Source: Sulfurospirillum multivorans DSM 12446 (lineage in GTDB: Bacteria; Campylobacterota; Campylobacteria; Campylobacterales; Sulfurospirillaceae). From it: a DNA stretch of 64,000 bases. The notes under the pieces were generated by a model. That model worked only from the letters and a program-made list of their open reading frames with translations, was not told where the DNA came from and did no database searches. Made by a program: the position numbers and the translations under genes. Each line of letters begins with the position of its first letter. Within the stretch, counting starts at the first letter, position 1. This document shows positions 1-36,930 of this stretch, piece by piece. The stretch is from assembly GCF_000568815.1 (NCBI RefSeq), contig NZ_CP007201.1, positions 1,116,001-1,180,000 on the forward strand. The letters are read 5' to 3'.

Positions 1-2632
<2,632 letters not shown>

Positions 2633-2635
2633 CCC

Positions 2636-3397
2636 ATGAAAGCGCTTAGGTTTATACTCAGCGGCAAAACGGCATGTTTTAGAAAACCTGATGTGAATGT
2701 ATTTGCCTATTTTACCTACAATAACATTCATAAACCAGCACTTTTGGGAATGCTTGGAGCTATCATCGGACTTGGTGGGCATAATCAACTGTCTAATAAA
2801 AATCGAGGTTTGAAAAAAGCTTCTTCAAGTTATGACGATGGCTTTCCTGAGTTTTATGGAAAACTAAAAGAGCTCAAAATTGCCATAACACCGCTTGCAC
2901 CAAATGGCTATTTTAGCAAGAAAATTCAAACGTTCAATAACAGTGTTGGTTATGCCAGTTTTGAGCAAGGTGGTAATCTCATTGTCCGTGAGCAGTGGCT
3001 TGAAAATCCTGTGTGGCAGATTTTGATACTTGATGATGAAAGTGAAGTCTTTCAAAAAATCAGTGAGTACTTTTTGAACGGCAAGTCAGTTTTTATCCCT
3101 TATCTTGGGAAAAATGACCATCCTGCAAAGATTGATGATGTGAGAATTATTGAGCTTTTACCGTTTATCAAAGAGCAAAAAGTATCTTCACTTTTTGAAG
3201 AAAATAAATTGCAAATAGTCAAATCTCCACCACGTGGTGAGCTATCGTACTATTTTAAAGAAGTTTCACCTATTCGCCTTAACGAACAACATCATTTTTA
3301 TGAGTATGCCAACTTGATATTTACAAATCATAAAATTGAAAATGAAAATGTCGAAGATGTTTTATCTTGTGAGGGCAACAATTATGCTTTTATCTGA
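2636..3397 (+). CDS. cas5: Cas5 (type I-B) Cascade subunit
   Basis: A 253-residue RAMP-family protein. The N-terminus MKALRFILSGKTACFRKPDV and the following NIHKPALLGMLGAIIGLGG segment are characteristic of Cas5 of subtype I-B: the first beta strand of the RRM fold, then the helix with the glycine-rich turn. Cas5 caps the 5' handle of crRNA in the surveillance complex. The start ATG at 2636 lies three bases after the cas7 stop. The 3' end overlaps the chosen cas3 start by 14 bases, so the genes are coupled. Nothing looks broken. Confidence 0.9.
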   Translation: MKALRFILSGKTACFRKPDVNVFAYFTYNNIHKPALLGMLGAIIGLGGHNQLSNKNRGLKKASSSYDDGFPEFYGKLKELKIAITPLAPNGYFSKKIQTFNNSVGYASFEQGGNLIVREQWLENPVWQILILDDESEVFQKISEYFLNGKSVFIPYLGKNDHPAKIDDVRIIELLPFIKEQKVSSLFEENKLQIVKSPPRGELSYYFKEVSPIRLNEQHHFYEYANLIFTNHKIENENVEDVLSCEGNNYAFI

Positions 3398-5789
3398 TTT
3401 TGGCATAGATGAGAGGTTTTTTGCACACACACGAGGAAGCGATAAAGAGATGTTATCGACGCATCTTAATCTTACATGTAACTATTATCAAAAGATCGTT
3501 ACATGTAAGAATCTTGAACCATTAATTGACTCAATTATTCATACAATCGATAGTGCGAATGCTGTATTGATCAAAGAAATGTTTGAAAATGCGATTTTTT
3601 TACATGATTTAGGTAAAAAAAATCCATGTTTTCAGGCAAAAAAGATGTTAAATCCTCTCTTTAAAGAGCATCTAAATTGTGGCGACAGCTCGCATTCACG
3701 TACTGGAGCGCTAGAATATATTAGCTATTACAGACCAACCATCAATCAAATAAAAGATGACACTTCATTTTATCGTTTGACGTATATTCTTTATAATTTT
3801 GCATATCATATTGACAAGCATCATGGCTATTTAGGCAACATTGAGAGCTACTGTTCTAAAACGACTAAAGAGCAAAATGACCATCCTGATTTTAATAATA
3901 TTAAAAACAATATTGACGAATACTTAGATAACAAGTTTGAATTTTACATCCTCAATAAACTTCTTTTTTCACTCCTTGTTTCTAGTGATTATTACGCTAC
4001 AACCGATTATATTGCAGGATTACCAATAGATGATTTTGGAGTGTTCTCAAGCTCTGCTAAACAGAGGCTCAATGAACTTTTTTCTACCTTTACATGTAAA
4101 CTTGAAAACCCTGTGGGAATCAACAAATTACGAATTGAACTGTTCCAGGAAGCAGAGCAAAATCTGCTTAAAAACCTAGATAAAAATATCTTTTACCTTG
4201 AAGCTCCAACAGGTAGCGGCAAGACCATTACTTCTATCAATTTAGCGCTAAAACTTTTAGAGAGCAATGAACATATCAATAAACTTTTTTATATTTTCCC
4301 GTTCAATACATTGGTGGAGCAAACTAAAAATGTGTTTGATGAGATATTTAAAAATAAACTTACAATAGAAGTAATTAATTCCATAACACCTATCTCGACA
4401 AAAGACCAAGAAGAGGAAGAGACGAAGTACGAAAAGTCTTATATTAACCGCCTTTTCTTTCATGCTCCTGCGATTATTACGACGCATGTGGCACTCTTCA
4501 ACATTCTTTTTGGAACATCTAAAGAAGATAATTTTCCTCTGTGGCAGTTGGCAAACAGTGTCATTATTTTAGATGAAATACAAAGTTACAATAACCATTT
4601 ATGGCATTATATGGTGGAGTTTTTCGACCAATACGCTGCATTACTCAATATAAAAATTATCATCATGTCAGCAACTTTGCCTAAACTTGATTACTTCCTA
4701 AAAGAGAAAAATAATTTTGTTGATTTGATTTCAAAAGAAAAGAGAGAATATTTTTTTACGCATACTCTTTTCAAGGATAGAGTGCAGGCTGATTTCACAT
4801 TTTTAAATGAGACGATGACTTTTGAACATTTAGAAGAAATATTAAAGGCTCAGCCAAAAAGCAAAAAGATTCTTTTTGAATTTATCAAAAAAAAGAGCGC
4901 ACGAGAGTTTTATACACGCATCAAAGCGACATATAAAAATGTTTATGAACTTAGTGGCGATGACAATAAGGCATATCGGCAGTTAATTATTAATAAAAGT
5001 AAAGAAGATATGCCTCTTATTATCATTGCAACGCAAGTCATTGAAGCTGGTGTTGACATTGATATGGATATAGGTTTTAAAGACATCTCAACACTCGATA
5101 GTGAAGAGCAGTTTATGGGGCGAATCAATCGAAGTTGTAAGCGTGAAGGGAAAGTCTATTTTTTCAATATGGACGAAGCATCAGAAATTTACTGTAACGA
5201 CCATCGTTTGAACTTTGATCTGACGCATGAAATCTATAGAGATATTTTGGCAAATAAATCGTTTGGAGTTTATTATCAAGAAGTTTTAGCGGAGATTAAA
5301 AAAAGTAGTGATAGGTTTGAGAACGGCTTACTGACAAATTATGATAACTTTACAACATTGTTAAAAAAGCTTAATTATAAAGAAATTGCTAAAACGATGA
5401 CATTAATTAGCTCTAATAATTTTACACTCTATTTTCCTTTTAAAATTGACATTGCTCAATACAAAGGCGTTCAAGAATTTGCCCCGAAGAATTTAGAAGA
5501 ACGATTTTTAAGTGATGGTTATTTAGATGGTCAAAAAGTATGGGATGCTTTTTTAGCCTTAAATGAAATAGATGGCTTTGCAAAAAAAGAGGTAGCAAAA
5601 TCTCGAATAAACGCACTCATGCAGTTTTTTACATTTACCATTTTTAAAAATCATGAAGGGCAAAGACCGAGCATTGGCGATGAAATGTATGGCTATTATT
5701 TTGTACAAGAGTATGGTAATTTTATTACCTCAGAAGGTAAGTTTGACAGGGAGCAATACAATGCAATCAAAAACTCTCATTTTTTATAA
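3384..5789 (+). CDS. cas3: Cas3 HD nuclease-helicase
   Basis: About 801 residues. The N-terminal HD nuclease domain shows FLHDLGKKNPCFQ near residue 75. The superfamily 2 helicase follows: Walker A APTGSGKT near 275, DEIQ box (ILDEIQSYN), motif III MSATLP and motif VI QFMGRINRS. Cas3 is recruited by Cascade and unwinds and degrades target DNA. I choose ATG 3384, preceded by a GAGGG ribosome site and overlapping cas5 by 14 bases; an upstream TTG at 3336 would lie deep inside cas5. Two copies of the TTACATGTAA palindrome sit near the 5' end at 3472 and 3499, and a third at 4090. All key motifs are intact, so interference should be possible. Confidence 0.95.
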   Translation: MLLSDFGIDERFFAHTRGSDKEMLSTHLNLTCNYYQKIVTCKNLEPLIDSIIHTIDSANAVLIKEMFENAIFLHDLGKKNPCFQAKKMLNPLFKEHLNCGDSSHSRTGALEYISYYRPTINQIKDDTSFYRLTYILYNFAYHIDKHHGYLGNIESYCSKTTKEQNDHPDFNNIKNNIDEYLDNKFEFYILNKLLFSLLVSSDYYATTDYIAGLPIDDFGVFSSSAKQRLNELFSTFTCKLENPVGINKLRIELFQEAEQNLLKNLDKNIFYLEAPTGSGKTITSINLALKLLESNEHINKLFYIFPFNTLVEQTKNVFDEIFKNKLTIEVINSITPISTKDQEEEETKYEKSYINRLFFHAPAIITTHVALFNILFGTSKEDNFPLWQLANSVIILDEIQSYNNHLWHYMVEFFDQYAALLNIKIIIMSATLPKLDYFLKEKNNFVDLISKEKREYFFTHTLFKDRVQADFTFLNETMTFEHLEEILKAQPKSKKILFEFIKKKSAREFYTRIKATYKNVYELSGDDNKAYRQLIINKSKEDMPLIIIATQVIEAGVDIDMDIGFKDISTLDSEEQFMGRINRSCKREGKVYFFNMDEASEIYCNDHRLNFDLTHEIYRDILANKSFGVYYQEVLAEIKKSSDRFENGLLTNYDNFTTLLKKLNYKEIAKTMTLISSNNFTLYFPFKIDIAQYKGVQEFAPKNLEERFLSDGYLDGQKVWDAFLALNEIDGFAKKEVAKSRINALMQFFTFTIFKNHEGQRPSIGDEMYGYYFVQEYGNFITSEGKFDREQYNAIKNSHFL

Positions 5790-5803
5790 AAACAAGGAAT
5801 CCC

Positions 5804-6616
5804 ATGGAAAAAATACAACTTTTTGAATCGAAAAAAATACGAAGCCATTGGGATGAAGAGAATGAGCTTTGGTATTTTAGTGTTATAGATGCGATTGAGG
5901 TTTTCACCCAAAGTTCTAATCCTAGAAAATACTGGAGCGTATTGAAAATACGCCTTAAAAACGAAGGAAGTCAACTGGCTACAAATTGTAGCCAGTTGAA
6001 AATGCAAGCAAGTGATGGAAAAATGAGAGCTACAGATGTGGCGACAACTGAACAGCTTTTACGCCTCATTCAGTCCATTCCTTCTCCTCAAGTCGAACCA
6101 TTTAAGCAGTGGCTCGCAAAAATAGGTTATGAGAGAATCGAGTCGATGCAAGACCCTGAAAAGTCCATAGATCAAGCGATGCAGGACTATCTCAAATTGG
6201 GATATACCGAAAAATGGATCAACCAACGACTCAAAAGTATCGAAGTGCGAAAAGAATTGACTGATGAGTGGAAAAAAAGAGGTTTAGAGGAGGGCAAAGA
6301 GTTTGCATTTTTAACTGACATTATTTCACAAGCATGGAGCGGTCACACCACACAAGCGTATAAAAAGTTAAAAAATCTCAAAAAAGAAAACCTTCGAGAC
6401 AATATGACAAATTTGGAGCTGGTGCTCACGATGCTAGCCGAAGCAACCACCGCAGAAATCTCAAAAGAAAAAAAGCCTAAAGGGTTTGATGAGAGTAAAA
6501 AAGTCGCCAAACAAGGCGGTATCATTGCAGGAGATACACGAAAAGCGATTGAGAAAAAGACGGGTAAGAAAGTGGTGACGAAGCAAAATGCTAGAGGATT
6601 ATTGGAAGACAAATGA
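5804..6616 (+). CDS. BRO-N / phage antirepressor-like protein inside the cas operon
   Basis: A 270-residue protein. Residues about 1-100 match the BRO-N type DNA-binding domain of phage antirepressors and DinD-like proteins: W.FSVIDAIEVF near residue 25, NPRKYWSVLKIRL, a SQL...SQLK doublet, then the TDVATTEQLLRLIQSIPS helix. The C-terminal two thirds are helical and charged, ending in a lysine-rich tail. It begins 14 bases after cas3 with a good ribosome site and ends in an ATGA overlap with cas4, so it is co-transcribed and coupled with adaptation genes. This family is not a known Cas protein. Possible roles are regulator of the operon, phage-derived passenger or accessory effector. Function here is unknown. 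Confidence 0.8.
   Translation: MEKIQLFESKKIRSHWDEENELWYFSVIDAIEVFTQSSNPRKYWSVLKIRLKNEGSQLATNCSQLKMQASDGKMRATDVATTEQLLRLIQSIPSPQVEPFKQWLAKIGYERIESMQDPEKSIDQAMQDYLKLGYTEKWINQRLKSIEVRKELTDEWKKRGLEEGKEFAFLTDIISQAWSGHTTQAYKKLKNLKKENLRDNMTNLELVLTMLAEATTAEISKEKKPKGFDESKKVAKQGGIIAGDTRKAIEKKTGKKVVTKQNARGLLEDK
5971..5999. repeat. Perfect 14-bp dyad inside the BRO-N gene
   Basis: Arms of 14 bases (TCAACTGGCTACAA and its exact complement) are separated by one base. It lies in the coding sequence for the SQL...SQLK doublet of the BRO-N domain. It could be a coding coincidence of a repeated peptide, an mRNA hairpin, or an operator for the protein itself. Confidence 0.85.
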
Positions 6617-7101
6617 TCACAGGAACCCTCATCAACTACTATTTTCATTGTCGCACGCAGTGTTGGCTTCACGCCAATCGCATCAACCTTGAAGACAACA
6701 GTGAGGATGTGCGCATCGGGAAAGTGTTGCATGAGATCAGCGAAGAGAAAGCGCAAAAAGCCGAAGTGAAGATAGACAATGTCAAGATCGATAAGATTAC
6801 CAAAGAGTACCTTGTGGAGCTAAAAAAGTCTGACTCTGATCCTGAAGCGGTGAAGTGGCAGGTGTTGCTTTATCTGTACAAACTAAGAGGCAAAGGCATT
6901 GAGCGCAAGGGCAAAGTCGAGTATCACGAAAAAAATCACAACACCAAAAGTGAGATCATTGAGCTAGATGATGCGAATGAAAAAGCACTTTTGTCCGTTT
7001 TGGAAGCTATAACGACGCTGATTACTTCGCCGACACCTCCAGCGCCTAAGTTTGAGAACAAATGCAAAAAATGCGCTTATTTTGATTACTGTTTTATATG
7101 A
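6613..7101 (+). CDS. cas4: Cas4 PD-(D/E)XK exonuclease
   Basis: A 162-residue protein. An N-terminal cysteine in YYFHCRTQCWLH and a C-terminal cluster CKKCAYFDYC form the usual four-cysteine iron-sulphur site. The nuclease core includes RIGKVLHEIS and the KGKVEYHEK strand. Cas4 trims prespacers and selects PAM-proximal ends with Cas1-Cas2. The ATG overlaps the stop of the BRO-N gene (ATGA). Length is short but normal for I-B Cas4. Six bases separate it from cas1. Codon use is less AT-rich than in cas8b, like cas1 and cas2. Confidence 0.92.
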   Translation: MITGTLINYYFHCRTQCWLHANRINLEDNSEDVRIGKVLHEISEEKAQKAEVKIDNVKIDKITKEYLVELKKSDSDPEAVKWQVLLYLYKLRGKGIERKGKVEYHEKNHNTKSEIIELDDANEKALLSVLEAITTLITSPTPPAPKFENKCKKCAYFDYCFI

Positions 7102-7107
7102 GGTAAC

Positions 7108-8420
<1,313 letters not shown>

Positions 8421-8585
8421 TTTTTCCAACCAAAGTTTAGTTTTTTTTAGGCGAAAAGTTGCTAAAATAGGGCGTTAAGTCGCCTTTTTGATCTTTAACA
8501 ATTCATTGTTAATTTTAATTGGAAAAAATGACACAAATGGCTATTTTATGGGATTTTGTATTTTAGAAAGCACCATAATCTAGCC
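8421..8585 (+). promoter_or_regulatory. CRISPR leader
   Basis: A 165-base AT-rich non-coding stretch between cas2 and the first repeat. It contains a short GGCG...CGCC hairpin followed by five T (8471-8488), which may end the cas transcript. It also holds an 8-bp perfect dyad TTAACAAT-TC-ATTGTTAA at 8495-8512. The leader side is fixed by adjacency to cas1-cas2 and by decayed repeats at the other end. The transcription start of the array must lie here but no clear -35/-10 pair stands out. Confidence 0.8.
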
Positions 8586-11500
8586 CTCGAACCGACACAA
8601 AGGTTGTATTGAAACGCAATCCATTCAGACAAATCGCCGTCAAAGTTATTTCTCGAACCGACACAAAGGTTGTATTGAAACAGTCGTAGAATACACCGAA
8701 GAAGATTATAAAGTAGACTCGAACCGACACAAAGGTTGTATTGAAACCTTGTATATTCGCCTCCGTCAGGGTGCGACATTTTGCTCGAACCGACACAAAG
8801 GTTGTATTGAAACTACATATAAGATACCGCCTACCTTACGTCCACGTGCCTCGAACCGACACAAAGGTTGTATTGAAACGCAACTAATAGAATACGTGCC
8901 AATAACTCACCGTCTCGAACCGACACAAAGGTTGTATTGAAACTGCAAAGATGCAATAACAAAAATAATAAAAGATATACTCGAACCGACACAAAGGTTG
9001 TATTGAAACTACATATAAGATACCGCCTACCTTACGTCCACGTGCCTCGAACCGACACAAAGGTTGTATTGAAACCTTAGTAATATTTGCCTAAAACTAT
9101 GTACATGACCGCTCGAACCGACACAAAGGTTGTATTGAAACACTGGTGCAGTTATTGACGGCAATCCATTAAGAGCCTCGAACCGACACAAAGGTTGTAT
9201 TGAAACCGTGTTAACAGAACGTGACTTCTTAGAACAATACAACTCGAACCGACACAAAGGTTGTATTGAAACTTAATTAGAAGCCTCTTTTACATTGCTT
9301 TCGATTGCTCGAACCGACACAAAGGTTGTATTGAAACATAAGATATTGTTTGCAATCACTTTCTCTCATCTTACTCGAACCGACACAAAGGTTGTATTGA
9401 AACAATTGCAGTGTGCAGAGAGTGCCACGATTACTGTCACTCGAACCGACACAAAGGTTGTATTGAAACATGCTTTCCATTCTCCATATCCTCGTTCTCT
9501 GAACGCTCGAACCGACACAAAGGTTGTATTGAAACTTTGTAAACTCCTTGAATAATCGTATTTTTTTGGGACTCGAACCGACACAAAGGTTGTATTGAAA
9601 CTCGCTTCCCGTTTTGTTGTAAAGAATTTCGCTACTCTCGAACCGACACAAAGGTTGTATTGAAACAAAAAGATAATGCGATGAGCATTATCGGAATGAT
9701 TAGCTCGAACCGACACAAAGGTTGTATTGAAACTTGAGGCACGCACATGTCATCAGTAACGCAAAAGGCTCGAACCGACACAAAGGTTGTATTGAAACCG
9801 TAACTTCTTAACCCACGTTTCAGTCTCGGTAATACTCGAACCGACACAAAGGTTGTATTGAAACCATTCCACCTCTGTTAAACTGTTTAGAGGCATCTTG
9901 CTCGAACCGACACAAAGGTTGTATTGAAACAATTATGATGATTACCCAGATTTTGAACTTATTAATCTCGAACCGACACAAAGGTTGTATTGAAACCCGT
10001 AAATGCTTCTTACCTGCGCTAAGCTCTCATAAAACTCGAACCGACACAAAGGTTGTATTGAAACAGACTTTAAAAATAATACTCTTAAATGTTTAATCGG
10101 CTCGAACCGACACAAAGGTTGTATTGAAACACGCCACGCAAACCAACAGATTAACGTTAATACGCAAACTCGAACCGACACAAAGGTTGTATTGAAACTA
10201 TTGTTTTAATGCCCCCTTGGTTATAGGCATACACTCGAACCGACACAAAGGTTGTATTGAAACTCTCTTCTCTTTTGGTAATGAAAGGAGCACGGATAAC
10301 TCGAACCGACACAAAGGTTGTATTGAAACCGCAATTACGCCAGTTTATAAACCAACGTATAACACACTCGAACCGACACAAAGGTTGTATTGAAACAATA
10401 TAAAACCTTTCATTTCCCTACTCCCTTCCCTTCTCGAACCGACACAAAGGTTGTATTGAAACGAATGTAAGGCAGTCATGTTTTTCGCACTCGTTTTCTC
10501 GAACCGACACAAAGGTTGTATTGAAACATGGTAGAAGGTATTGAATTTTATCTTAAAAATTTAACTCGAACCGACACAAAGGTTGTATTGAAACTGGAAC
10601 TTAAGCACGTCCAAAAGTTTATCTGTGTACTCGAACCGACACAAAGGTTGTATTGAAACTTTTTATACAAAAGAACAAGTGGTGGACGGGTTTGACTCGA
10701 ACCGACACAAAGGTTGTATTGAAACTAAATGATGGAGTAGTAGAACGTGCGGGAGCTTCTACTCGAACCGACACAAAGGTTGTATTGAAACCAGCTTTAC
10801 AATTTAGATAGTTTTGATGCGTTTAACTCGAACCGACACAAAGGTTGTATTGAAACAAGTCAAGCATGATCGTATTACATTCTTCCAAAACTCGAACCGA
10901 CACAAAGGTTGTATTGAAACTTGCTTAACGCTTGTTTACGTACGCTTAATTTTGCCTCGAACCGACACAAAGGTTGTATTGAAACAATAAACTACAATAA
11001 AAAGTTTTTGGCATTGCGTCCTCGAACCGACACAAAGGTTGTATTGAAACAGCTAGGCTCGTTTAACTTCCACGTTGACTCTAAATTCTCGAACCGACAC
11101 AAAGGTTGTATTGAAACCAAATTAAAGAAGCTTACGAGAACAAATGCATTTCTGCTCGAACCGACACAAAGGTTGTATTGAAACGACACGTATGCCTTTG
11201 CAAGTGCTTTTTTTGGCACTCTCGAACCGACACAAAGGTTGTATTGAAACTTGATAGCTTAACTGGTGATATTCCTTTAGCTTCCTCGAACCGACACAAA
11301 GGTTGTATTGAAACTTTTTAGGGGCGTTTAGACTGCTTTTTTATGTCTAGCTCGAACCGACACAAAGGTTGTATTGAAACTCGTAAAATCTCCATAAAGT
11401 CGGCGTGCTCTCGTTCCTCGAACCGACACAAAGGTTGTATTGAAACATGGGATTTAATCCGCATTTAAATTTGATTACTTCTCGAACCGACACAAAGGTT

Positions 11501-14500
11501 GTATTGAAACTCGCTCACGGTTTCCGCTTGGCTTTCGCTTGGCTCGCTCGAACCGACACAAAGGTTGTATTGAAACTCGGGGCAACCGCCCCTGATTGGC
11601 TCGAATATGTCGCCTCGAACCGACACAAAGGTTGTATTGAAACCGGGGCAACCGCCCCTGATTGGCTCGAATATGTCGCCTCGAACCGACACAAAGGTTG
11701 TATTGAAACCTGAACGGTTTGTTTTTTTGCGTTCTTGCTAAGCTCGAACCGACACAAAGGTTGTATTGAAACGACTGACGGTGAAGAAGAATGGCAAGTA
11801 GGTACATGCTCGAACCGACACAAAGGTTGTATTGAAACTTTATTTTCCTTATTGATAAATTATACCATTCGCCTCGAACCGACACAAAGGTTGTATTGAA
11901 ACACGGTAGGCATATTCCCTAAAACCTTAACTTTCACTCGAACCGACACAAAGGTTGTATTGAAACAAGAGTGCCAATATTAGAGACGGTGCTGATTTCT
12001 GCTCGAACCGACACAAAGGTTGTATTGAAACGTCTGTGTAGGTTGTGGTATTTAATAGTCCCATCCTCGAACCGACACAAAGGTTGTATTGAAACTGTCG
12101 TAGCTTGTCCCGCTTGTGAGCGGGATTTCGTCTCGAACCGACACAAAGGTTGTATTGAAACTGTCGTAGCTTGTCCCGCTTGTGAGCGGGATTTCGTCTC
12201 GAACCGACACAAAGGTTGTATTGAAACTTTTTAGGGGCGTTTAGACTGCTTTTTTATGTCTAGCTCGAACCGACACAAAGGTTGTATTGAAACCTTTGTC
12301 TTTCCTCTCATCGCAAAGCGGGCGACCATCTCGAACCGACACAAAGGTTGTATTGAAACAGTGTTCCCGCTTGAATTTGAGCCACGAGCATAGCTCTCGA
12401 ACCGACACAAAGGTTGTATTGAAACATTATTGCCTGCTTAAAATCAATCTTCTTTTTTTCTCGAACCGACACAAAGGTTGTATTGAAACATTCGTCATCA
12501 TTGTGGCTTTCGATAAATTGGGTCACTCGAACCGACACAAAGGTTGTATTGAAACCTTTGTCTTTCCTCTCATCGCAAAGCGGGCGACCATCTCGAACCG
12601 ACACAAAGGTTGTATTGAAACCAAAAGAAGATATTTTGCTAATGCAGAACTTCGCCCTCGAACCGACACAAAGGTTGTATTGAAACCAAGCGGGACAAGC
12701 TACGACATGACGAACGCCTCCCTCGAACCGACACAAAGGTTGTATTGAAACGATGAAGCGATGACAATGCGGGCATTTTTTACGACTCGAACCGACACAA
12801 AGGTTGTATTGAAACCGAGCACATCGCCCGCTTTTAGCGAGCCGATGAGGCTCGAACCGACACAAAGGTTGTATTGAAACAAGGAATTGTACTAAGAACA
12901 AAACCACGCAAATATCTCGAACCGACACAAAGGTTGTATTGAAACTGTCGTAGCTTGTCCCGCTTGTGAGCGGGATTTCGCTCGAACCGACACAAAGGTT
13001 GTATTGAAACTGTCGTAGCTTGTCCCGCTTGTGAGCGGGATTTCGTCTCGAACCGACACAAAGGTTGTATTGAAACGTAGTTCGATGGCGTTCGATGATA
13101 TGGAAACTGAAGCTCGAACCGACACAAAGGTTGTATTGAAACTAACAGCAAGTACATGAGAAAGATTGACACTTTAGCTCGAACCGACACAAAGGTTGTA
13201 TTGAAACTCTCTAAATAACATTAGATGTCTCCTTCTTTCCAACTCGAACCGACACAAAGGTTGTATTGAAACGTTATAATTCTCCTAATGACACCCCTAG
13301 CGCATTTGCTCGAACCGACACAAAGGTTGTATTGAAACCTGGTGGTCGCACAGTCGATAAAGATTTTGGCATCTCGAACCGACACAAAGGTTGTATTGAA
13401 ACTTAAATCCACTTACTCTGCTTTTTTCTTTTGCCCCTCGAACCGACACAAAGGTTGTATTGAAACTGCTTCTAAAACTGACGGTAACACTAGGGGTGCT
13501 GGCTCGAACCGACACAAAGGTTGTATTGAAACAAAGTCGTTCATTATTGCACACGCTCTCTTTTCTCGAACCGACACAAAGGTTGTATTGAAACTAAATA
13601 AAAGGAGAATAGTTCATTTCAGTTCTTAGCTCGAACCGACACAAAGGTTGTATTGAAACGCGTGTACGGAGTAACGACAGTAACAGACGTTAAAGCTCGA
13701 ACCGACACAAAGGTTGTATTGAAACAATTTACAAATGTTGGAGCTCAAACTGCACGAATTACTCGAACCGACACAAAGGTTGTATTGAAACTGCTTAGCT
13801 GTGAGGTGGTACGACTAGGTAAATATACTCGAACCGACACAAAGGTTGTATTGAAACTACAGTTATCTATATAGATACTCTCGAGAATCTTCTCGAACCG
13901 ACACAAAGGTTGTATTGAAACTTAAGATAGCACCACAAGATTGGAAGAGTAAGTTAGCTCGAACCGACACAAAGGTTGTATTGAAACCCTCGTGGACATG
14001 AGGACGAACTCGCAGAAATGACACTCGAACCGACACAAAGGTTGTATTGAAACCTTGGCGGTTGTCGAACATGGGAGATGCGGAAGCGCTCGAACCGACA
14101 CAAAGGTTGTATTGAAACCAAAGCGTAGGAGAGATTAGCGTATCTTATGCGCAACTCGAACCGACACAAAGGTTGTATTGAAACATTTATTGAGTATAAA
14201 AGCAAAGATTTTAAAATTATCTCGAACCGACACAAAGGTTGTATTGAAACTAAGCTATCTTTCCGCCCTCTGTGTACTCTATTGGACTCGAACCGACACA
14301 AAGGTTGTATTGAAACTTTGTAGAAAGTACACCCTGCTCGTCTGTCATTACCTCGAACCGACACAAAGGTTGTATTGAAACCTATTACAAGTGATACAAC
14401 TGGCGCAACTTCTGCACCTCGAACCGACACAAAGGTTGTATTGAAACCCACTAAGCCTACAAGCACAAAGAACAATCAAGACGCTCGAACCGACACAAAG

Positions 14501-17500
14501 GTTGTATTGAAACTTCAAAAAGAGGGAACAGCCGCACAAGCAGACAACCCTCGAACCGACACAAAGGTTGTATTGAAACTAAAATTTTGAAAAGTCGTGC
14601 CAATCATCACATACCCTCGAACCGACACAAAGGTTGTATTGAAACGATGCACTTGGTTCTTTTACAAGTAAAACGGTAAACTCGAACCGACACAAAGGTT
14701 GTATTGAAACGATACTAATACTCTGCATTGTGCATTATCCTCATCACTCGAACCGACACAAAGGTTGTATTGAAACTGCAGGTACACTTCGAGGCTCTCA
14801 AAAGGACAGATTCTCGAACCGACACAAAGGTTGTATTGAAACGGGTTACTAAGAGATAGAAAAGGAGCCTTAGCAGTAACTCGAACCGACACAAAGGTTG
14901 TATTGAAACTAAGTCGACTATGATTAAGTTCTTAGACTTTGGTACACTCGAACCGACACAAAGGTTGTATTGAAACTATGCAATGGAGAACAAAGATTTA
15001 TTATTGAGAAATCTCGAACCGACACAAAGGTTGTATTGAAACTCGTTTACATACACGCATTTAGGGGTAAGCGAGCTCTCGAACCGACACAAAGGTTGTA
15101 TTGAAACGAGTTTGAAAATGCATATAAACAAACAATGCTAACTCGAACCGACACAAAGGTTGTATTGAAACTGTATGGCGATCTTAACAACGATAAACAA
15201 TCCTTTCTCGAACCGACACAAAGGTTGTATTGAAACCGTATGTTAAGAAACTCATGCCGGTTTAAGTTTACTCGAACCGACACAAAGGTTGTATTGAAAC
15301 TCCAATTTTAAAAGATTTGGAACAAAAAGAAAATACTCGAACCGACACAAAGGTTGTATTGAAACCGTATGTTAAGAAACTCATGCCGGTTTAAGTTTAA
15401 CTCGAACCGACACAAAGGTTGTATTGAAACGATAAATTAAAAGTTTCATCTGGCTTAAATTCAGCTCGAACCGACACAAAGGTTGTATTGAAACCAATAA
15501 GCAGAGAACAATCCAAACTTACTTATAACTCGAACCGACACAAAGGTTGTATTGAAACTGATTGGTGTCATAAAAATAAAGCGTTGAGCCAGGCTCGAAC
15601 CGACACAAAGGTTGTATTGAAACACTAAATAAAACATACCACCTATTAATGCGCCTACCTCGAACCGACACAAAGGTTGTATTGAAACGTTGGTTAGTCA
15701 TTTTCCACTCCTTGATTTTTTCCTCGAACCGACACAAAGGTTGTATTGAAACCAAATTACACCATGCTCCTGTGGACCGAGATGACCTCTCGAACCGACA
15801 CAAAGGTTGTATTGAAACGACAAATACCTTAACCCCTGGGTCTCCTGCAAGCGCTCGAACCGACACAAAGGTTGTATTGAAACTCCCTGCGGATGAGTGG
15901 GTAAATATGCCTGCTACACTCGAACCGACACAAAGGTTGTATTGAAACTAGGCAAAATACAATACTTCGCCGCATAGGTTTTAACCTCGAACCGACACAA
16001 AGGTTGTATTGAAACATACTTGCGTAAGATAAACACGCCTTTTCACTTTCTCGAACCGACACAAAGGTTGTATTGAAACCTATGGTAAAAAATACTATGG
16101 CATCGCTAGATAAACCTCGAACCGACACAAAGGTTGTATTGAAACAGCTCTTATAGAGAAGTTTAATGATGAAAGTATAGGCTCGAACCGACACAAAGGT
16201 TGTATTGAAACTCGCTTGCAATAGGCTTTACCTTGTCGCCTAGTTCTCGAACCGACACAAAGGTTGTATTGAAACCCTATGTAATAATTTATTACCCAGT
16301 ACAAATATAAGCTCGAACCGACACAAAGGTTGTATTGAAACCAAACCACTGCACGATCACGAACCACTGCATCATCTCGAACCGACACAAAGGTTGTATT
16401 GAAACACGCTTAAGCGTAGTTCACTCAAATACCAATAACCTCGAACCGACACAAAGGTTGTATTGAAACTGGCGTACAGTTTGGGGTGATCCTGAAATAC
16501 AAACTCGAACCGACACAAAGGTTGTATTGAAACGTGACTACTGCAAACTTAGGAAATGGTATAGTAGCTCGAACCGACACAAAGGTTGTATTGAAACGGA
16601 AGTAGATAGCGTTAACGTTCTTAACCAAGATTACTCGAACCGACACAAAGGTTGTATTGAAACTTTTGTCCCAAAATTCTCCTTTAAAAAAGACATACTC
16701 GAACCGACACAAAGGTTGTATTGAAACCATAAGCAAAGAATTATAAACAGTAAGCCTTTACACCTCGAACCGACACAAAGGTTGTATTGAAACCCTATCT
16801 CTGTTTGTGTTAATTTAAACAGTTTCCCTCGAACCGACACAAAGGTTGTATTGAAACTTTACTAAAAAGGATAAACATGTCTAGAGTACTCGCTCGAACC
16901 GACACAAAGGTTGTATTGAAACTTAAACGCCAGGACAAAAACGGTTACAACGGTGCGTTCCTCGAACCGACACAAAGGTTGTATTGAAACCTTGATACAT
17001 GTCCTCATACGTGCTGCTAAACCAAACTCGAACCGACACAAAGGTTGTATTGAAACTCTTCTCCAATGCGATCTCAGGCGCAGACTCATTTCACTCGAAC
17101 CGACACAAAGGTTGTATTGAAACTAGCATTTAAGATCAATCAATGACATGTAATCACCTCGAACCGACACAAAGGTTGTATTGAAACAGGCTGAAGAAAA
17201 AGAGACCATTTACCATAACAACTCGAACCGACACAAAGGTTGTATTGAAACTAAGAAAAGCACTCTGCCAAAAGTTGAAAAAGTCCACTCGAACCGACAC
17301 AAAGGTTGTATTGAAACCGGACTCATCAGGGCTTAAGTGTGTGTCTAAAAACTCTCGAACCGACACAAAGGTTGTATTGAAACAGGTTTTAGTGATGCAG
17401 AAATAGAGGCTATTCAAACTCGAACCGACACAAAGGTTGTATTGAAACTTTACTAAAAAGGATAAACATGTCTAGAGTACTCGCTCGAACCGACACAAAG

Positions 17501-18169
17501 GTTGTATTGAAACTTAAACGCCAGGACAAAAACGGTTACAACGGTGCGTTCCTCGAACCGACACAAAGGTTGTATTGAAACCTTGATACATGTCCTCATA
17601 CGTGCTGCTAAACCAAACTCGAACCGACACAAAGGTTGTATTGAAACTCTTCTCCAATGCGATCTCAGGCGCAGACTCATTTCACTCGAACCGACACAAA
17701 GGTTGTATTGAAACAGGCTGAAGAAAAAGAGACCATTTACCATAACAACTCGAACCGACACAAAGGTTGTATTGAAACTAAGAAAAGCACTCTGCCAAAA
17801 GTTGAAAAAGTCCACTCGAACCGACACAAAGGTTGTATTGAAACCGGACTCATCAGGGCTTAAGTGTGTGTCTAAAAACTCTCGAACCGACACAAAGGTT
17901 GTATTGAAACAGGTTTTAGTGATGCAGAAATAGAGGCTATTCAAACTCGAACCGACACAAAGGTTGTATTGAAAAGTGGAACACAACATAACCAAAGAGC
18001 AGAATTAAACTCGAACCGACACAAGATTTGTATTTAAACACGGACGATGGTACGACATCTATTTGCTAAACTCACTCGAACCGACACAAGATTTGTATTT
18101 AAACTAGTTAGGATCGCTACAATTACGCTCTTTGATTTGCTCGAACCGACACAAATAGTGTTATGACAA
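8586..18169 (+). CRISPR. Type I-B CRISPR array, about 147 repeats
   Basis: The 30-base repeat starts CTCGAACCGACAC and ends GGTTGTATTGAAAC, and is essentially invariant for 143 copies. Copy 144 (17946) has a changed last base. The final three copies (18010, 18075, 18140) are degenerate, and two of these share the same changed 3' half. I counted about 147 copies and 146 spacers by hand; spacers are mostly 34-38 bases and the mean period is about 65.4. The ATTGAAAC end is the usual type I-B 5' handle, so transcription runs rightward from the leader. Several spacers recur (see findings), and a block of eight spacers is duplicated near the distal end. No mobile element interrupts the array. Confidence 0.98.
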
Positions 18170-30216: not shown

Positions 30217-31593
30217 AAAGATAATGGTCTTATTCCTGATTCACTTCCTGTTTCTTCTTGGTTAAGTACTGCTTATGATGCTTATGGAAAACCTATAACG
30301 AATGCTGCAGGACAATTTTTTCAAGCTCTTGGTTGGGTAATTGCTTATGAATCGACGGGTGATGGTTCATTTGTTATTTCACCAACTGGTTTGAATTCTC
30401 TTAATCCTTTTGCTGTTCTTGGTTCAGGTCTTTTCACTTTGGGTTCTGCAATGGTAACTCCTGATGATGTTGTAATTGCTACACCTACAAATACTGATAA
30501 TGGTGTTACTGTTAATGTTTCTAGTAATTCGGGTGTCTCTTTTGATCAACTTTCAACTGTTGCGTCTTCAACGCCTGAAAGTGGTACACCTGTTTTTTCT
30601 AAAAATGGAATATATACTCAAAGACAAATTACGGAAGCAAATTTAAAAACTGTTTGGGATAATTCCGCAGGTGTTGGTAAAATGCCTGCTACTGCTTTAA
30701 TTTTGGGTAGTGATATTATTTTTCCTACAAATAGTCCAAGCACTGCGCTTATTAATTCACCTACACAAGTCGAAATTGTAAAAACAAGTCCTGATAATAC
30801 AGCGCAATCAATCGTAGTTAATAAAGCAGATTTGGCAAATACTGCAAGTAGTGGTACTGATCTTCCTTATACGGTTAAAGATTATAAAGCTCCTGTAATT
30901 AATAATGATGGAACGGTTACACAAGCAACAACTTCAACGCCTTCATCCACATCGCCTTCGAATGGCAATACAACAAGTACAAACCCTACAACAGGTCAAA
31001 CAACAACTACACCTTCTTCTACACTTAGTGGAACTGCTACAACCAGTGATGGCAAAAGTATTGATCTTAATGGTGTTACTGGTCGTTTAGATAGCCTTGG
31101 AAAACAACTCGAAAAGGGTAATGGTCTACTGGAAACTGGTAATGGTCTCTTATCTGGAATAAAGGGCAATACTGATTCTATGAAAGGGAGTTTAAATGGT
31201 ATTGAAAATACTTTAAATATTTTCAAAAATACGAGTGGTTTTTCTGCTGATACAATTGAACATAATATTCCTAATGTTCCTTCTGAAATTGATAGTTGGG
31301 AAACAACGTATAATAATTTAAAAAGTGATTTTGACAATGTTTTATCAACAGTTGATGAATTAAAATCTCTTGTAAATGGTGCACCTTTAACATTAAATCT
31401 TTCTCGTGGTTCTGTAACAACGTGTCTTTATTCACAAGATGTTGATTTTGTGTATTTTAATGTTCCTTTTGAAATGGATTTATGTGCTGTTTTTTCTCCT
31501 TTTTCCTCTGTAATTTATCTTTTTACGTATTTTTCTTTAATGATTTCAATAGTTTTTTTTGCTTTTAAAGTTTTATTGATTATAGGAGTCTGA
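30217..31593 (+). pseudogene. Phage adhesin (pIII-like), C-terminal part
   Basis: 458 codons follow the IS. A Ser/Thr/Pro-rich linker (about 30900-31020; STPSSTSPSNGNTTSTNPTT) is followed by a coil with repeated units GNGLLETGNGLLSG. A C-terminal anchor (VIYLFTYFSLMISIVFFAF) completes the typical layout of a filamentous-phage tip protein. An open frame through the IS end gives a false start at 30154. Reconstructed, the full protein is about 636 residues. The insertion should prevent infection by particles carrying this protein. Confidence 0.8.
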
Positions 31594-31594
31594 C

Positions 31595-32047
31595 ATGCCA
31601 TTTCTAATATCTGTGAGTGCTTTTTTTTCACGTATTTGGGGATTTTTTAGTTCTGGTGGTCCTTTAATGGCTTTTTTTGTTTGGTTAGGTAAGAAACTTG
31701 TTATGAAATTTGGAATGGTTCCAGTTCAGTTTACTATTACGGCTTTGTTTTTTTCTTCTAAAGCTTTTTTCTTTTTAAGCTGTCTTGACTTGATACGACG
31801 TTTATACAACAAATTTAAAGAGCTTTTTGATACTTTGCCTTCTTCTATTTCTTCAACACCTTCTTTAGACATACCTTTTAAAGTACTTCAATCTACACGG
31901 ATTATTGATGCTTTTTTAGATGCTTTTTCATTTTTTGTTTTGGTCTTCTCATCGCTTCTTTTGATTTATATTTCCAAAGTTGCGACTAAGGCATTAGAGC
32001 AAATTAAAAATGATTTTCATAAAATGTCAATGTTAATGATGGCTTAA
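31595..32047 (+). CDS. pVI-like minor virion membrane protein
   Basis: 150 residues, three hydrophobic regions (about 1-30, 40-62 and 108-130) and a short basic linker. It starts one base after the adhesin stop and ends one base before the Zot gene. In filamentous phages the gene between tip adhesin and assembly ATPase encodes pVI, which anchors the adhesin to the particle. The match is by position and topology. Confidence 0.7.
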   Translation: MPFLISVSAFFSRIWGFFSSGGPLMAFFVWLGKKLVMKFGMVPVQFTITALFFSSKAFFFLSCLDLIRRLYNKFKELFDTLPSSISSTPSLDIPFKVLQSTRIIDAFLDAFSFFVLVFSSLLLIYISKVATKALEQIKNDFHKMSMLMMA

Positions 32048-32048
32048 G

Positions 32049-33287
32049 ATGGCAATTACATATTTAACGGGTATTCCTCGAAGTGGAAAAAGCTATTGGG
32101 CTGTTTATAAGCTTTATCATTATTTTGTAGAAAAAAAACGTAAACGTCCTTTTTTGATTGGTTTTTTTTATAAAAATTTTTACAAAAAAGTTAAAAAAGA
32201 AAATCGTAAATCTTTTATTATTGCTCTTTATAACATATTTGGTAAAAAAGAAAAGTTTTTCTTTTATGCCTATACAAATATTAATCAATTTGATTTTTCA
32301 AAATCTTCTCGTATCAAATTTTTTGATTATGATGTTCTTTACTCTCATCTTGAATATTTACATGCCATGTATCTTTCAAAATGTAATGATGCTGAATTGC
32401 TTGATTATGCACGTTTGCATGATTTATATAAAGTTTTTTTTGTAATTGATGAGTGTCAAAACTTTTTTGCTAAAGACAATATAGTCCTTACATGGTGGTT
32501 TAGTTATCATGGACACTTACATCAAGATATTTTCCTTATTACACAAAATCTCGGACTTATCTATAAAGAGTATTTTAAATTAGCAGAATTTTTCTATCGT
32601 GCTATTCCTCCATCAAATCGACTTTATGCTAATAAATTTCGTTATATGCAGTTTAATTCTTATCAGCTTTATAAAACTGATCGTATAGGTGTTTTTAACG
32701 TTCCTATTGTTCAAGATGTATTTAAAATGTATGTGTCTGGCGCTGAAAATAATAGTCCTAGTGTTGTAAGAAAGTATTTTTTATTTGCAATTCTTTTTTT
32801 TGTTTTTTTGTTTAGTGCATTTATTTTATTTTTGGGTTCTTTTTCTACGGACACACCAATATCAGCTACTACTCTTGATAGTAATGTGACTGATCAGCGT
32901 CAAATATCTGTGACACAACAGGATAAAAAACAAACTTCAAAAGATATTATAGAGGCTAAAAAACTCTCAAATAAAGATGACAAAGAAATCAAAAATGAAC
33001 TCTTTGAAATTCGATGTATTGACATGCTTTGTACATACAAAGGTATTGATTTTCCAAAACCTCTTTTAAATAAATTGACCGCTAAGTTAGGGCCTGAATT
33101 CATATGGTTTTTTAATGATGGCTCATACATTCAATACTTTGTCATGCTCCCCTCTGATACGTTTGATTTTCTCCAAAAAGATGAAAAAAAAGAAAAATCC
33201 ACTAAGGAAAATAAAAATGGTGCTAACACTTCAAAAGAGAATAAAATCTCTAATCCTATGCCTACTGCTTTCGCTATTCATAAGTAG
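32049..33287 (+). CDS. zot: Zot-like assembly ATPase (pI-like)
   Basis: 412 residues. Walker A GIPRSGKSYW is at residues 8-17 and Walker B FFVIDECQNFF is near 135, giving a P-loop domain on the cytoplasmic side. One membrane helix (about 240-262, LFAILFFVFLFSAFILFLG) precedes a periplasmic tail with two cysteines (IRCIDMLCTY). This is the Zonular occludens toxin / pI family that drives extrusion of filamentous phages. The TTACATGTAA-like bases at 32356 are only a partial match. The secretin gene begins inside its 3' end. Confidence 0.9.
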   Translation: MAITYLTGIPRSGKSYWAVYKLYHYFVEKKRKRPFLIGFFYKNFYKKVKKENRKSFIIALYNIFGKKEKFFFYAYTNINQFDFSKSSRIKFFDYDVLYSHLEYLHAMYLSKCNDAELLDYARLHDLYKVFFVIDECQNFFAKDNIVLTWWFSYHGHLHQDIFLITQNLGLIYKEYFKLAEFFYRAIPPSNRLYANKFRYMQFNSYQLYKTDRIGVFNVPIVQDVFKMYVSGAENNSPSVVRKYFLFAILFFVFLFSAFILFLGSFSTDTPISATTLDSNVTDQRQISVTQQDKKQTSKDIIEAKKLSNKDDKEIKNELFEIRCIDMLCTYKGIDFPKPLLNKLTAKLGPEFIWFFNDGSYIQYFVMLPSDTFDFLQKDEKKEKSTKENKNGANTSKENKISNPMPTAFAIHK

Positions 33288-34455
33288 TTCTTTTGCTGAG
33301 AGTATTAAGTACTCTGTTCCGCTTCGTGAGTTTGCTCAAAAGGTAGCAACAGATAACAAAGTAAACATTCTTATTCAAGAGTCTGTTGACGATGAACAGG
33401 TAACATTCTTTATAGGCGATAAAGATGCAACGGTGTATCTCCCTGCATTTAAAAAAATGCTTTATCTCAAAGGTCTTGATCTCAAAAAAGATAAAAGCGA
33501 TTTTTACTATATTGAGCCAATACCTGAAAAAAAAGAAGAACCAAAAAAAGAGCCTGAATCGATCAAAGACGTTTTTCATTCTGTAACGCTTAAAAATCCT
33601 GTTTATTCTGATGTCGAAAATCTTTTAAAAATGCATGAAGGTGTTAAATATACCTATATCTCTTCGACAAATTCAGTTTCGTTTTTTTGCAAACCTGAAT
33701 ACTCCGCAGAACTTTTAAAAAGTATCGCTTCACTTGATGTTCCATACAGCCAAATTCAGTTTAAAATAACGGTGCTTGAAACGAGTTTGGAAGATGTCAA
33801 AGATAGAGGCGCAAATCTTAGTGCTTACATGCAATCTGTTCAAAAAACTGATAGCGATGGCAATTCGGTAAATTCGTCTTATAACTATTTTTTAAACCTT
33901 ATTACTATGCCTTATTCTGCAACGACGAATGTACTTGAAAATTCAAAAAGTGGTTTCTATGGGGTTCTTAAATATCTTAATCAAAATGGTTTTACTGAGA
34001 TAAAAAACTCTCCAGTGATTACGGCACGATCTCAAACTGAAGCTTCTTTTTCAAGTGGTCAAAATATTCCTTATTTGATTAATACATCTACATACAGTAG
34101 TGCTTCTACAACGTCCGCTAATTCTTATTCTTATAAAGATGTTGGGCTTAAAATAATAATCAAACCGATCATCATCGGTGACAGTGTAAATTTTGATTTA
34201 ACACTGACGCTTGAAGATTTGTTGAGTAGTTCTGATTCAAGGACCCCTACAACGTCCAAGAAGGAGCTAAAAAGCACTTATCTTTTAAAAAAGGGTGAAT
34301 TGCTCGTTTTAAGCGGTATTAACAAAGAAACGCAACTGGATAGCTCTTATGGCATTCCTGTCCTTCAAAACATTTTTTTACTAGGAGAGCTTTTTAAATA
34401 TGAGTCTAAGACAAAAACGAACTCTATTGTAACGATTACGATTGAGGTGCTGTGA
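33217..34455 (+). CDS. Phage secretin (pIV-like outer-membrane channel)
   Basis: About 412 residues from ATG 33217, chosen because AAGGA lies eight bases upstream and a signal peptide (IKSLILCLLLSLFISSSFA) follows. N-domains are followed by a secretin core with ITARSQTEASFSSGQNIPYL and KDVGLKIIIKPIIIGD. It ends with LLKKGELLVLSGINKETQ..SYGIPVLQNIFLLGELF, the conserved secretin beta-signature. It overlaps the Zot gene by about 70 bases. Secretins form the gate through which the filament leaves; the phage therefore brings its own exit pore. Confidence 0.9.
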   Translation: MVLTLQKRIKSLILCLLLSLFISSSFAESIKYSVPLREFAQKVATDNKVNILIQESVDDEQVTFFIGDKDATVYLPAFKKMLYLKGLDLKKDKSDFYYIEPIPEKKEEPKKEPESIKDVFHSVTLKNPVYSDVENLLKMHEGVKYTYISSTNSVSFFCKPEYSAELLKSIASLDVPYSQIQFKITVLETSLEDVKDRGANLSAYMQSVQKTDSDGNSVNSSYNYFLNLITMPYSATTNVLENSKSGFYGVLKYLNQNGFTEIKNSPVITARSQTEASFSSGQNIPYLINTSTYSSASTTSANSYSYKDVGLKIIIKPIIIGDSVNFDLTLTLEDLLSSSDSRTPTTSKKELKSTYLLKKGELLVLSGINKETQLDSSYGIPVLQNIFLLGELFKYESKTKTNSIVTITIEVL

Positions 34456-34734
34456 TGTTAAAGAGAAATTAGCATCGCAGATAGAAGAGAGCGAGGCATA
34501 GCCTATAAGCGAACGTGAGGACTAGCGCAGCGTAACAGTACATAGTTACAACCTGCAAAACGATGAGAACGTAAGGTGCTGTAAAGGGCGAGAGTGAGTT
34601 TTGAGACTCTATCCTAAGCAGCTGATTTTTTGAGTGAGTGAATGAGAGAGTGAGCCTGCGAACGAACGAATGAGCGAAGCTCTCTTGTCAACTTAACAAA
34701 AGTTTCCCGAACTATTTTAAAAAAGGTGCTTATT
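34456..34734 (+). other. Structured non-coding region before rep
   Basis: 279 bases without a credible gene and with base composition unlike the flanks (rich in GAG, GCGA and GAACG runs). Short stems are visible: AGGC-ATA-GCCT (34496-34506) and GTAAC...GTTAC (34538-34551). A repetitive GAGTGAGTGAATGAGAGAGTGAG stretch, broken here for length, lies near 34632-34655. This is a good place for the plus-strand origin nicked by Rep, or for a structured RNA. Confidence 0.5.
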
Positions 34735-36045: not shown

Positions 36046-36930
36046 ATGACACTCCAAAACTTCTATGATGAATTCTTCGAGTTAACTGTGCCTATTCAGT
36101 CCGAAAAGACAGTTTCAACAAAGAGAGCTTTTTTTAAAAATAGAATTCTTCCTGCTCTTGGTGAGATAGAAATGAATGAAATTAAATACAAACACATCCA
36201 AGAATTCGTTAATGCTCTCTTGCTTGAACTCAAACCAAAGACAGTTAAAAATATCATTAGTGGTCTTTCTACCTTATACCGCTATGCACAAAAGCATGAA
36301 ATTGTAGATAGTAACCCTTGCGTTTTTGCAGAACTTCCACAATTCGATAATAAAAGAGATTTTGAATATTCCAAAGAGGTTCAGATCGAATTCGTTAAAT
36401 CTGCATTGACGTATCGTGAACCCATGATGAGAGATATCTTTCTCTTTTTGTTCCATGGTCGAAGAAAAGGGGAGGTATTGAATCTAACGTGGGATATGGT
36501 CGACTTCGATCAAAGGCTCTACCGAATCCCCGCAATGATAAATAAAGCACGTAAAAATATGAGTTATAAAATGACTGATATTCTCTATGATCGTCTTATG
36601 TTCCATTATCTGCATGAATGTATTAATCAAAATACACGCTTCCCACGTGGCTATGTGTTCGTTAATCCTGAAACACGTACGAAATATTCCTATTTGAAAA
36701 AAGCATGGGAGCGATTTTTAGAGTCCAATGATCTTCCAAAAATTAGACTTCATGATATACGCCATCTAATAGGTACGTATTCGATCAATATTTTAGAGTT
36801 ACCGATTGAAAAAATCAGTCATACGCTTGGTCATACGAATGTAGCAACGACAGAAAAATACGTCACGATAAAACCTGAAACAAGTAAACAAGTGATTGAT
36901 AAGATTTTTGCGAGTGTTGAAAGTATTTGA
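36046..36930 (+). CDS. int: Tyrosine integrase of the prophage
   Basis: 294 residues. An N-terminal SAM-like core-binding domain (about 1-90) precedes the catalytic domain. The catalytic Arg is in FLFHGRRKGEVLNLTW, HDIRH gives the His-x-x-Arg box, and HTLGHTNVATTEKYV gives the second His and the nucleophilic Tyr. The last bases of the gene form part of the attachment repeat next to tRNA-Gln, typical of tRNA-targeting integrases. A remnant of a related gene is at 22208. It inserts at the tRNA-fMet anticodon loop, judging by the repeat boundary. Confidence 0.93.
   Translation: MTLQNFYDEFFELTVPIQSEKTVSTKRAFFKNRILPALGEIEMNEIKYKHIQEFVNALLLELKPKTVKNIISGLSTLYRYAQKHEIVDSNPCVFAELPQFDNKRDFEYSKEVQIEFVKSALTYREPMMRDIFLFLFHGRRKGEVLNLTWDMVDFDQRLYRIPAMINKARKNMSYKMTDILYDRLMFHYLHECINQNTRFPRGYVFVNPETRTKYSYLKKAWERFLESNDLPKIRLHDIRHLIGTYSINILELPIEKISHTLGHTNVATTEKYVTIKPETSKQVIDKIFASVESI

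What the first reader, a model, noticed from the sequence alone, without database searches (positions are those of the whole stretch)
12096..13046. Four copies of one spacer plus a spacer from its opposite strand
The spacer starting TGTCGTAGCTTGTCCCGCTT occurs at 12096, 12162, 12946 and 13011. The spacer at 12687 begins with the exact reverse complement of its first 21 bases. Overlapping spacers from both strands of one target are expected from primed adaptation or repeated sampling of a hotspot. The 12946 copy is one base shorter, so at least some are separate acquisitions.
Basis: seen in the sequence. Interest (0 to 1): 0.55.

Follow-up and report, generated by a model that had tools for sequence, protein, structure and literature searches.

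The report
CRISPR memory repeatedly sampled one plasmid
A bacterium's CRISPR memory holds 26 fragments that match one small plasmid, one of them stored four times and once more from the opposite strand, so its immune system seems to have returned to the same invader and the same spot on it.

Summary
Spacers 54, 55, 67 and 68 of a 145-spacer type I-B array are one sequence (67 is 1 nt shorter), and spacer 63 starts with the exact reverse complement of its first 21 nt. The source was found: a 5,849-bp circle (contig filed under Thiospirillum jenense) related to small Campylobacter plasmids. It holds the whole 36-nt protospacer. 26 of 145 spacers map to it with 0-8 mismatches, 16 of them consecutive (54-69); 2,900 shuffled spacers never came below 10. 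21 of the 26 have a 5' TCA, including both strands at the focal site. Four draws of one TCA site are unlikely under uniform sampling (P about 0.001), and S. deleyianum's array holds a diverged spacer from exactly the same position. Repeated sampling of one plasmid at a preferred site is therefore supported. Primed adaptation in particular is not shown: other protospacers do not crowd the focal site significantly and strands do not split around it. Array recombination is a weaker rival. Side finding: S. deleyianum has 97-98% identical Cas1 and Cas2 but a very different I-B effector, and its spacers from the same plasmid mostly carry CCA (9 of 11) instead of TCA.

The parts
12096..12131 (+). Spacer 54, T copy (36 nt)
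   Evidence: exact match to L036 1327-1362, 5' TCA
12162..12197 (+). Spacer 55, T copy (36 nt)
12687..12721 (+). Spacer 63, from the opposite strand of the T site; overlaps T by 21 nt
   Evidence: L036 1313-1347 minus strand, 3 mismatches, 5' TCA
12946..12980 (+). Spacer 67, T copy one base shorter (35 nt)
13011..13046 (+). Spacer 68, T copy (36 nt)
12096..13112 (+). Run of 16 consecutive spacers (54-69) that all match L036
   Evidence: longest run in 20,000 random placements 8
11315..11742 (+). Spacers 42-48, all matching L036; 42 recurs as 56, 46/47 are one site shifted by one base
9602..9768 (+). Spacers 16-18, three further L036 matches nearer the leader
8586..18104 (+). CRISPR array, 146 repeats of 30 bp (143 identical), 145 spacers
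8421..8585 (+). Leader region between cas2 and the first repeat, nearly identical to that of S. deleyianum
   Evidence: about 95-98% per 60-base block
129..5789 (+). I-B interference genes: Cas8b (129-1712), Cas7b (1727-2632), Cas5b (2636-3397), Cas3 (3336-5789)
6613..8420 (+). Adaptation genes: Cas4 (6613-7101), Cas1b (7108-8112), Cas2 (within ORF 8025-8420)

Best explanation
The repeated spacers are mostly independent, PAM-guided captures from one small circular plasmid lineage by the type I-B Cas4-Cas1-Cas2 machinery encoded next to the array. The plasmid family, represented by the 5,849-bp circle L036, was met over a long stretch of the array's history. The TCA at L036 1324-1326 was used four times with the same PAM-side end, and a TCA on the other strand (1348-1350) once, which gives the overlapping opposite-strand spacer. 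Shown: one source molecule, TCA on both strands, excess re-use of one site, a long consecutive run. Inferred: that the copies are separate acquisitions, and that attack on an already recognised plasmid supplied the fragments (interference-driven or primed adaptation), which would explain the runs of same-source spacers.
For: 26 of 145 spacers map to L036 with 0-8 mismatches, 14 of them exactly; 2,900 shuffled spacers gave at best 10 mismatches. 5' TCA in 21 of 26 spacers, 16 of 21 distinct 5' ends. With 21 draws over 181 TCA sites, a site used 4 or more times has P 0.001, and 8 or more same-site pairs P 0.0002. Run of 16 against at most 8 in 20,000 random placements. Three same-site pairs are array neighbours against 0.64 expected, P 0.016; two of the three differ by one base. 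S. deleyianum spacer 13 starts at exactly the T position and strand with 6 mismatches to L036.
Against: 12 of 26 matches have 1-8 mismatches, so L036 is a relative and not the very plasmid met; five spacers inside the block (49-53) do not match it. Two exact matches (17, 62) lack TCA. Several copies have exactly equal length, where 0.30 is expected for random pairs, which leaves room for array recombination. Uniform sampling of TCA sites is only a simple null. The S. deleyianum spacer at the T site is its only one of 11 with TCA on L036, so its true flank is uncertain.
Confidence: 0.8

Rival explanations
1. Primed adaptation proper: an older crRNA (spacer 69 or a T copy) recognised the returning plasmid and Cas3 fragments from around it fed the new spacers, T again included.
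For: Older matching spacers existed before the later ones; 16 consecutive same-source spacers; opposite-strand overlapping spacers. Published primed I-F and self-targeting I-B experiments show spacers from both strands near the target (passages of PMC5059440; PMC7521656).
Against: 19 other distinct sites are not significantly closer to T than random TCA sites (median, P 0.14; within 600 bp, 6 against 4.4 expected, P 0.26); 15 of 21 distinct ends on the plus strand, P 0.13; no left/right strand split around T, P 1.0. On a 5.8-kb circle with several rounds such a pattern could blur.
Confidence: 0.45
2. The extra T copies arose by recombination between repeats inside the array, not by new acquisition.
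For: The array has a clear block duplication: spacers 127-130 and 132-135 recur as 136-143. pSulSP also has a three-spacer block copy. Three T copies are identical.
Against: The T copies share no neighbours (53 and 56; 66 and 69). Copy 67 is one base shorter; pairs 46/47 and 102/104 also differ by a base. In S. deleyianum two same-site pairs differ by 1 and 2 substitutions (49/53, 51/56), although 24/25 and 70/71 there are identical neighbours.
Confidence: 0.15
3. The T site is favoured because it forms a hairpin, for example in single-stranded plasmid DNA during rolling-circle replication.
For: T contains the inverted repeat TCCCGCT/AGCGGGA and folds at -12.9 kcal/mol with RNA parameters.
Against: The S. 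deleyianum spacer from the same position has lost the hairpin (-2.8 kcal/mol) and was still captured. The other re-used sites were not folded. Rolling-circle replication of L036 is my guess from motifs; no family match.
Confidence: 0.1

Closest known systems
Interference-driven and primed spacer acquisition in type I systems (I-F of Pectobacterium, PMC5059440; I-B of Haloferax, PMC7521656; passages seen)
   Same: Many spacers from one plasmid or target region, both strands, PAM slips by one or two bases, variable PAM-distal length.
   Different: Here a natural array with repeated use of one site; the positional and strand gradients reported there were tested and not seen.
Type I-B system of Clostridioides difficile with YCN PAM (PMC8406132; passages seen)
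   Same: I-B with Cas4-Cas1-Cas2 and a 5' pyrimidine-C flank; TCA and CCA both belong to YCN.
   Different: In C. difficile CCN was reported as the more effective; here the window's spacers have TCA in 21 of 26 and CCA in none.
Small cryptic Campylobacter plasmids (pSUIS6137, 6,090 bp; pCJDM204S, 5,257 bp)
   Same: Size, a YdjM-like gene 60-63% identical and an AAA protein 32-34% identical to those of L036, a recombinase.
   Different: No relative of L036's 231-aa putative replication protein was found in the plasmid collection.

Membership tests
Type I-B CRISPR-Cas | Cas3, Cas5b, Cas7b and Cas8b in one operon | tested here: met
Type I-B CRISPR-Cas | Cas4, Cas1b and Cas2 adaptation genes beside the array | tested here: met
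Type I-B CRISPR-Cas | PAM on the 5' side of the protospacer | tested here: met
   TCA in 21 of 26
Type I-B CRISPR-Cas | Cas6 processing enzyme | not tested
   Not among the eight ORFs scanned at 129-8420; sequence before the window was not examined
Hotspot re-sampling | Same PAM-side end used more often than uniform sampling of PAM sites gives | tested here: met
   P 0.001 for 4 or more uses
Hotspot re-sampling | Same position used independently in another host | tested here: met
   S. deleyianum spacer 13, 6 mismatches, same start and strand; one spacer only
Primed adaptation | An older spacer against the same target precedes the new ones | tested here: met
   Spacers 69 and 68 lie furthest from the leader among the 26; array polarity from diverged end repeats and the usual rule (recalled)
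Primed adaptation | Position and strand gradient around the priming protospacer | tested here: inconclusive
   Not significant with T as centre; spacer 69 was not tested as centre; about 20 sites give little power
Primed adaptation | Dependence on the interference complex and Cas3 | not testable with these tools
   Needs an acquisition assay
Array duplication by recombination | Copies carry their neighbours along | tested here: not met
   Neighbours of 54/55 and 67/68 differ; met only for 127-135 and 136-143

The most novel reading that the evidence does not exclude
In Sulfurospirillum a nearly constant Cas4-Cas1-Cas2 module has been joined to different I-B effector modules, and the flank of spacers taken from one plasmid changes with the effector: TCA with the Csh/Hmari-like effector of this window, CCA with the Tneap-like effector of S. 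deleyianum. The PAM written into these arrays would then be set by interference (coupled acquisition, or selection of working spacers) and not by Cas1-Cas2, a natural swap experiment on who chooses the PAM. Cas4, 13% different between the two, could be the cause instead.
Probability: 0.35. Interest if true: 0.6.

Novelty: new member of a known kind. Interest (0 to 1): 0.42.

Why it matters
It turns an odd set of repeated spacers into an ordered record of a long contest between Sulfurospirillum and one small plasmid family, gives the likely PAM of this system, and shows two species holding a spacer from the same position. The effector exchange with a changed flank makes an open question testable: whether the PAMs seen in natural arrays are set by the adaptation proteins or by the interference complex.

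Tried and rejected
Own-genome target: rejected. The pattern search finds only the five array places. Of 25 matches of L036 in the own genome, 24 lie in the array and one is a 36-base 89% match at 2162381.

Phage, plasmid and viral-contig targets: exact scans of viral contigs with 21 bases of T and with 30 bases of spacer 42 gave none. Phage records gave no match to T nor to 8586-16585 of the array (16586-18104 was not searched). Plasmid records gave for T one 24-base 92% match in a Halolamina tnpB, E about 1, taken as chance, and for the array stretch one Sulfurospirillum plasmid that carries a similar array. Relatives of three L036 proteins in viral contigs: none confirmed. Relatives of the putative Rep among plasmids: none.

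Filamentous-phage reading of L036: I thought the 232-aa ATPase Zot-like, but Pfam and PHROGs gave no Zot match at E 0.01 (only weak AAA matches under Pfam's cut-off). Its single-sequence model is useless (mean pLDDT 32.9), so no fold search was made. Relatives lie on 53 plasmid records, and YdjM and the ATPase occur together in 5 of 6 loci examined, two of the six from one contig. I call L036 a plasmid-like circle.

Host of L036: the assembly holding it has one rpoB match and no copy of this repeat; an SSU rRNA search gave nothing, but that search also missed 5 of 14 control genomes. Neither contamination by a Sulfurospirillum nor T. jenense as host could be shown.

Other arrays: spacers of pSulSP, G002, G010, G014, G015, G021 and G022 gave no match to L036 at 9 mismatches or fewer; G023 gave one.

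Full report
What is there. The window holds a CRISPR array at 8586-18104 with 146 repeats and 145 spacers. Before it lie cas genes: Cas8b, Cas7b, Cas5b, Cas3, a Bro-N gene, Cas4, Cas1b, Cas2, a type I-B set; Cas6 was not among the ORFs scanned. G003, of the same genus, has exactly the 2,306,351 bp reported for S. deleyianum (passages of PMC3035281), and 3.18 Mbp is listed for both S. multivorans strains (passage of PMC7755780). So the genus is Sulfurospirillum and the species probably S. multivorans; both names rest on sizes.

The observation. The four copies and the opposite-strand spacer are as described. Spacers are numbered from the leader side: T copies are 54, 55, 67 and 68; the opposite-strand spacer is 63. 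The far end holds the diverged repeats, so by the usual rule (recalled) low numbers are recent.

PAM from the array alone. Because 63 and T overlap on opposite strands, each shows the other's 5' flank in the array sequence itself, and both flanks read TCA. L036 bears this out.

The target. A 24-base probe from spacer 63, scanned over the species-genome collection, found one contig of 5,849 bp, NZ_JABVCQ010000055.1, filed under Thiospirillum jenense DSM 216 (L036). Read across its ends, one gene becomes a 176-aa YdjM-like protein in frame with no base missing, so I take the contig for a closed circle. It encodes a resolvase, a staphylococcal-nuclease-like protein, a methyltransferase-like protein, a weakly AAA-like ATPase and a 231-aa protein that I take for a replication protein from its motifs (recalled; no family match). 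Campylobacter plasmids of 5-6 kb share the YdjM gene (60-63% identity) and the ATPase family (32-34%).

Other spacers from the same molecule. Of all 145 spacers, 26 map with 0-8 mismatches: 16-18, 42-48 and 54-69. 14 match exactly; the weakest are 59 (8 mismatches) and 18, 46 and 47 (6 each). 2,900 shuffled spacers never gave fewer than 10. Spacers 49-53 did not map. The longest run is 16 consecutive spacers; 20,000 random placements gave at most 8. 21 of 26 have 5' TCA, 16 of 21 distinct 5' ends. The exceptions are 17 (TTA), 47 (TCA shifted by one), 48 (TCA shifted by two), 62 (TAA) and 64 (TCT, with mismatches at its start).

Is it more than chance re-use? With 21 TCA-flanked draws spread evenly over 181 TCA sites, some site used four or more times has P 0.001, and the observed 8 same-site pairs or more P 0.0002. 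Three same-site pairs are neighbours in the array against 0.64 expected (P 0.016). Two of the three, 46/47 and 67/68, differ by one base, which plain tandem copying would not give. In S. deleyianum 11 of 109 spacers map to L036, and spacer 13 starts at exactly the T position on the same strand, from a variant with six changes. That array also has same-site pairs that differ by one or two substitutions (49/53, 51/56), an opposite-strand overlapping pair (2/46) and two identical neighbouring pairs (24/25, 70/71).

Primed or not. With T as centre, the 19 other distinct sites (T copies and 47 left out) are not significantly closer than random TCA sites (P 0.14; within 600 bp P 0.26), the plus-strand excess is 15 of 21 (P 0.13), and strands do not split left and right of T (P 1.0). 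Published I-B and I-F work reports such gradients (passages of PMC7521656, and PMC5059440). The runs of same-source spacers fit interference-coupled acquisition, but its signature is not seen, with little power.

Recombination. A block duplication exists elsewhere: 127-130 and 132-135 recur as 136-143. The T copies do not share neighbours. Equal length of several copies, where 0.30 is expected for random pairs, leaves room for some copied units.

A side result. S. deleyianum Cas1 is 98% and Cas2 97% identical to the window's, Cas4 87%, and the leader is nearly identical. Cas8 shows no significant similarity, Cas7 and Cas5 barely any, Cas3 26% over 354 aligned columns. PADLOC profiles place the two effectors in different I-B kinds. 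In the genus, 8 of 23 other genomes have a Cas1 93-98% identical to the window's, beside several different effector sets. Flanks on the same plasmid are TCA in 21 of 26 and CCA in 0 of 26 here, against TCA in 1 of 11 and CCA in 9 of 11 in S. deleyianum (Fisher P 5e-7). On a prophage of another species S. deleyianum spacer 72 has CCA and 73 a CCA shifted by one base, with 7 mismatches each. G023 has Cas7, Cas5 and Cas3 like the window's, a Cas8 only 33% identical, and a Cas4 slightly closer to that of S. deleyianum (94 against 91%). Its four mapped spacers have, at their best places, TCA, TCA, TCG and ACT, each with 4-5 mismatches. This hints that the effector, or selection, sets the flank. Cas4 is not excluded, and only two systems have real counts.

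Literature. No paper of the held library holds Sulfurospirillum, spacers and protospacer together. Of 11 papers listed for S. multivorans and CRISPR, three were seen, as passages; the CRISPR passages shown there report numbers of arrays, repeats or spacers. PAM slips and targeted acquisition are known from assays, and C. difficile I-B uses YCN (passages of PMC8406132). Hence a new member of a known kind.

Noticed in passing
window 30154-36930: Filamentous-phage-like prophage: Zot-like (32049-33287), pIV-like secretin (33115-34455), a weak replication-nicking match (34726-36045) and an integrase (36046-36930). A spacer of another Sulfurospirillum (G023) matches 31668 with 5 mismatches and 5' TCA; no spacer of this array comes within 8 mismatches of 18201-64000.
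   Followed up: partly
window 5804-6616: A Bro-N gene (PADLOC candidate PDC-S13, E 1.7e-132) sits between cas3 and cas4. It is also beside cas4 in G022 and, between cas4 and cas1, in G010, but there is no room for it between cas3 and cas4 in S. deleyianum or pSulSP.
   Followed up: partly
window 18010-18104: The last two repeats of the array are exactly the S. deleyianum repeat type (four differences from the other repeats), as if an older array type survives at the far end.
   Followed up: no
window 16858-17945: Block duplication: spacers 127-130 and 132-135 recur in order as 136-143, with 131 missing.
   Followed up: no
L059, L081-L087: Nearly constant Cas4-Cas1-Cas2 modules are joined to several different I-B effector sets across the genus.
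   Followed up: partly
window 8814-9045 and 15237-15400: Two further re-used spacers with unknown target: 4/7 identical, 102/104 one base different in length.
   Followed up: no
L036 1-5849: A plasmid-like circle targeted by three Sulfurospirillum genomes is filed in the assembly of a purple sulfur bacterium; its true host is unknown.
   Followed up: partly
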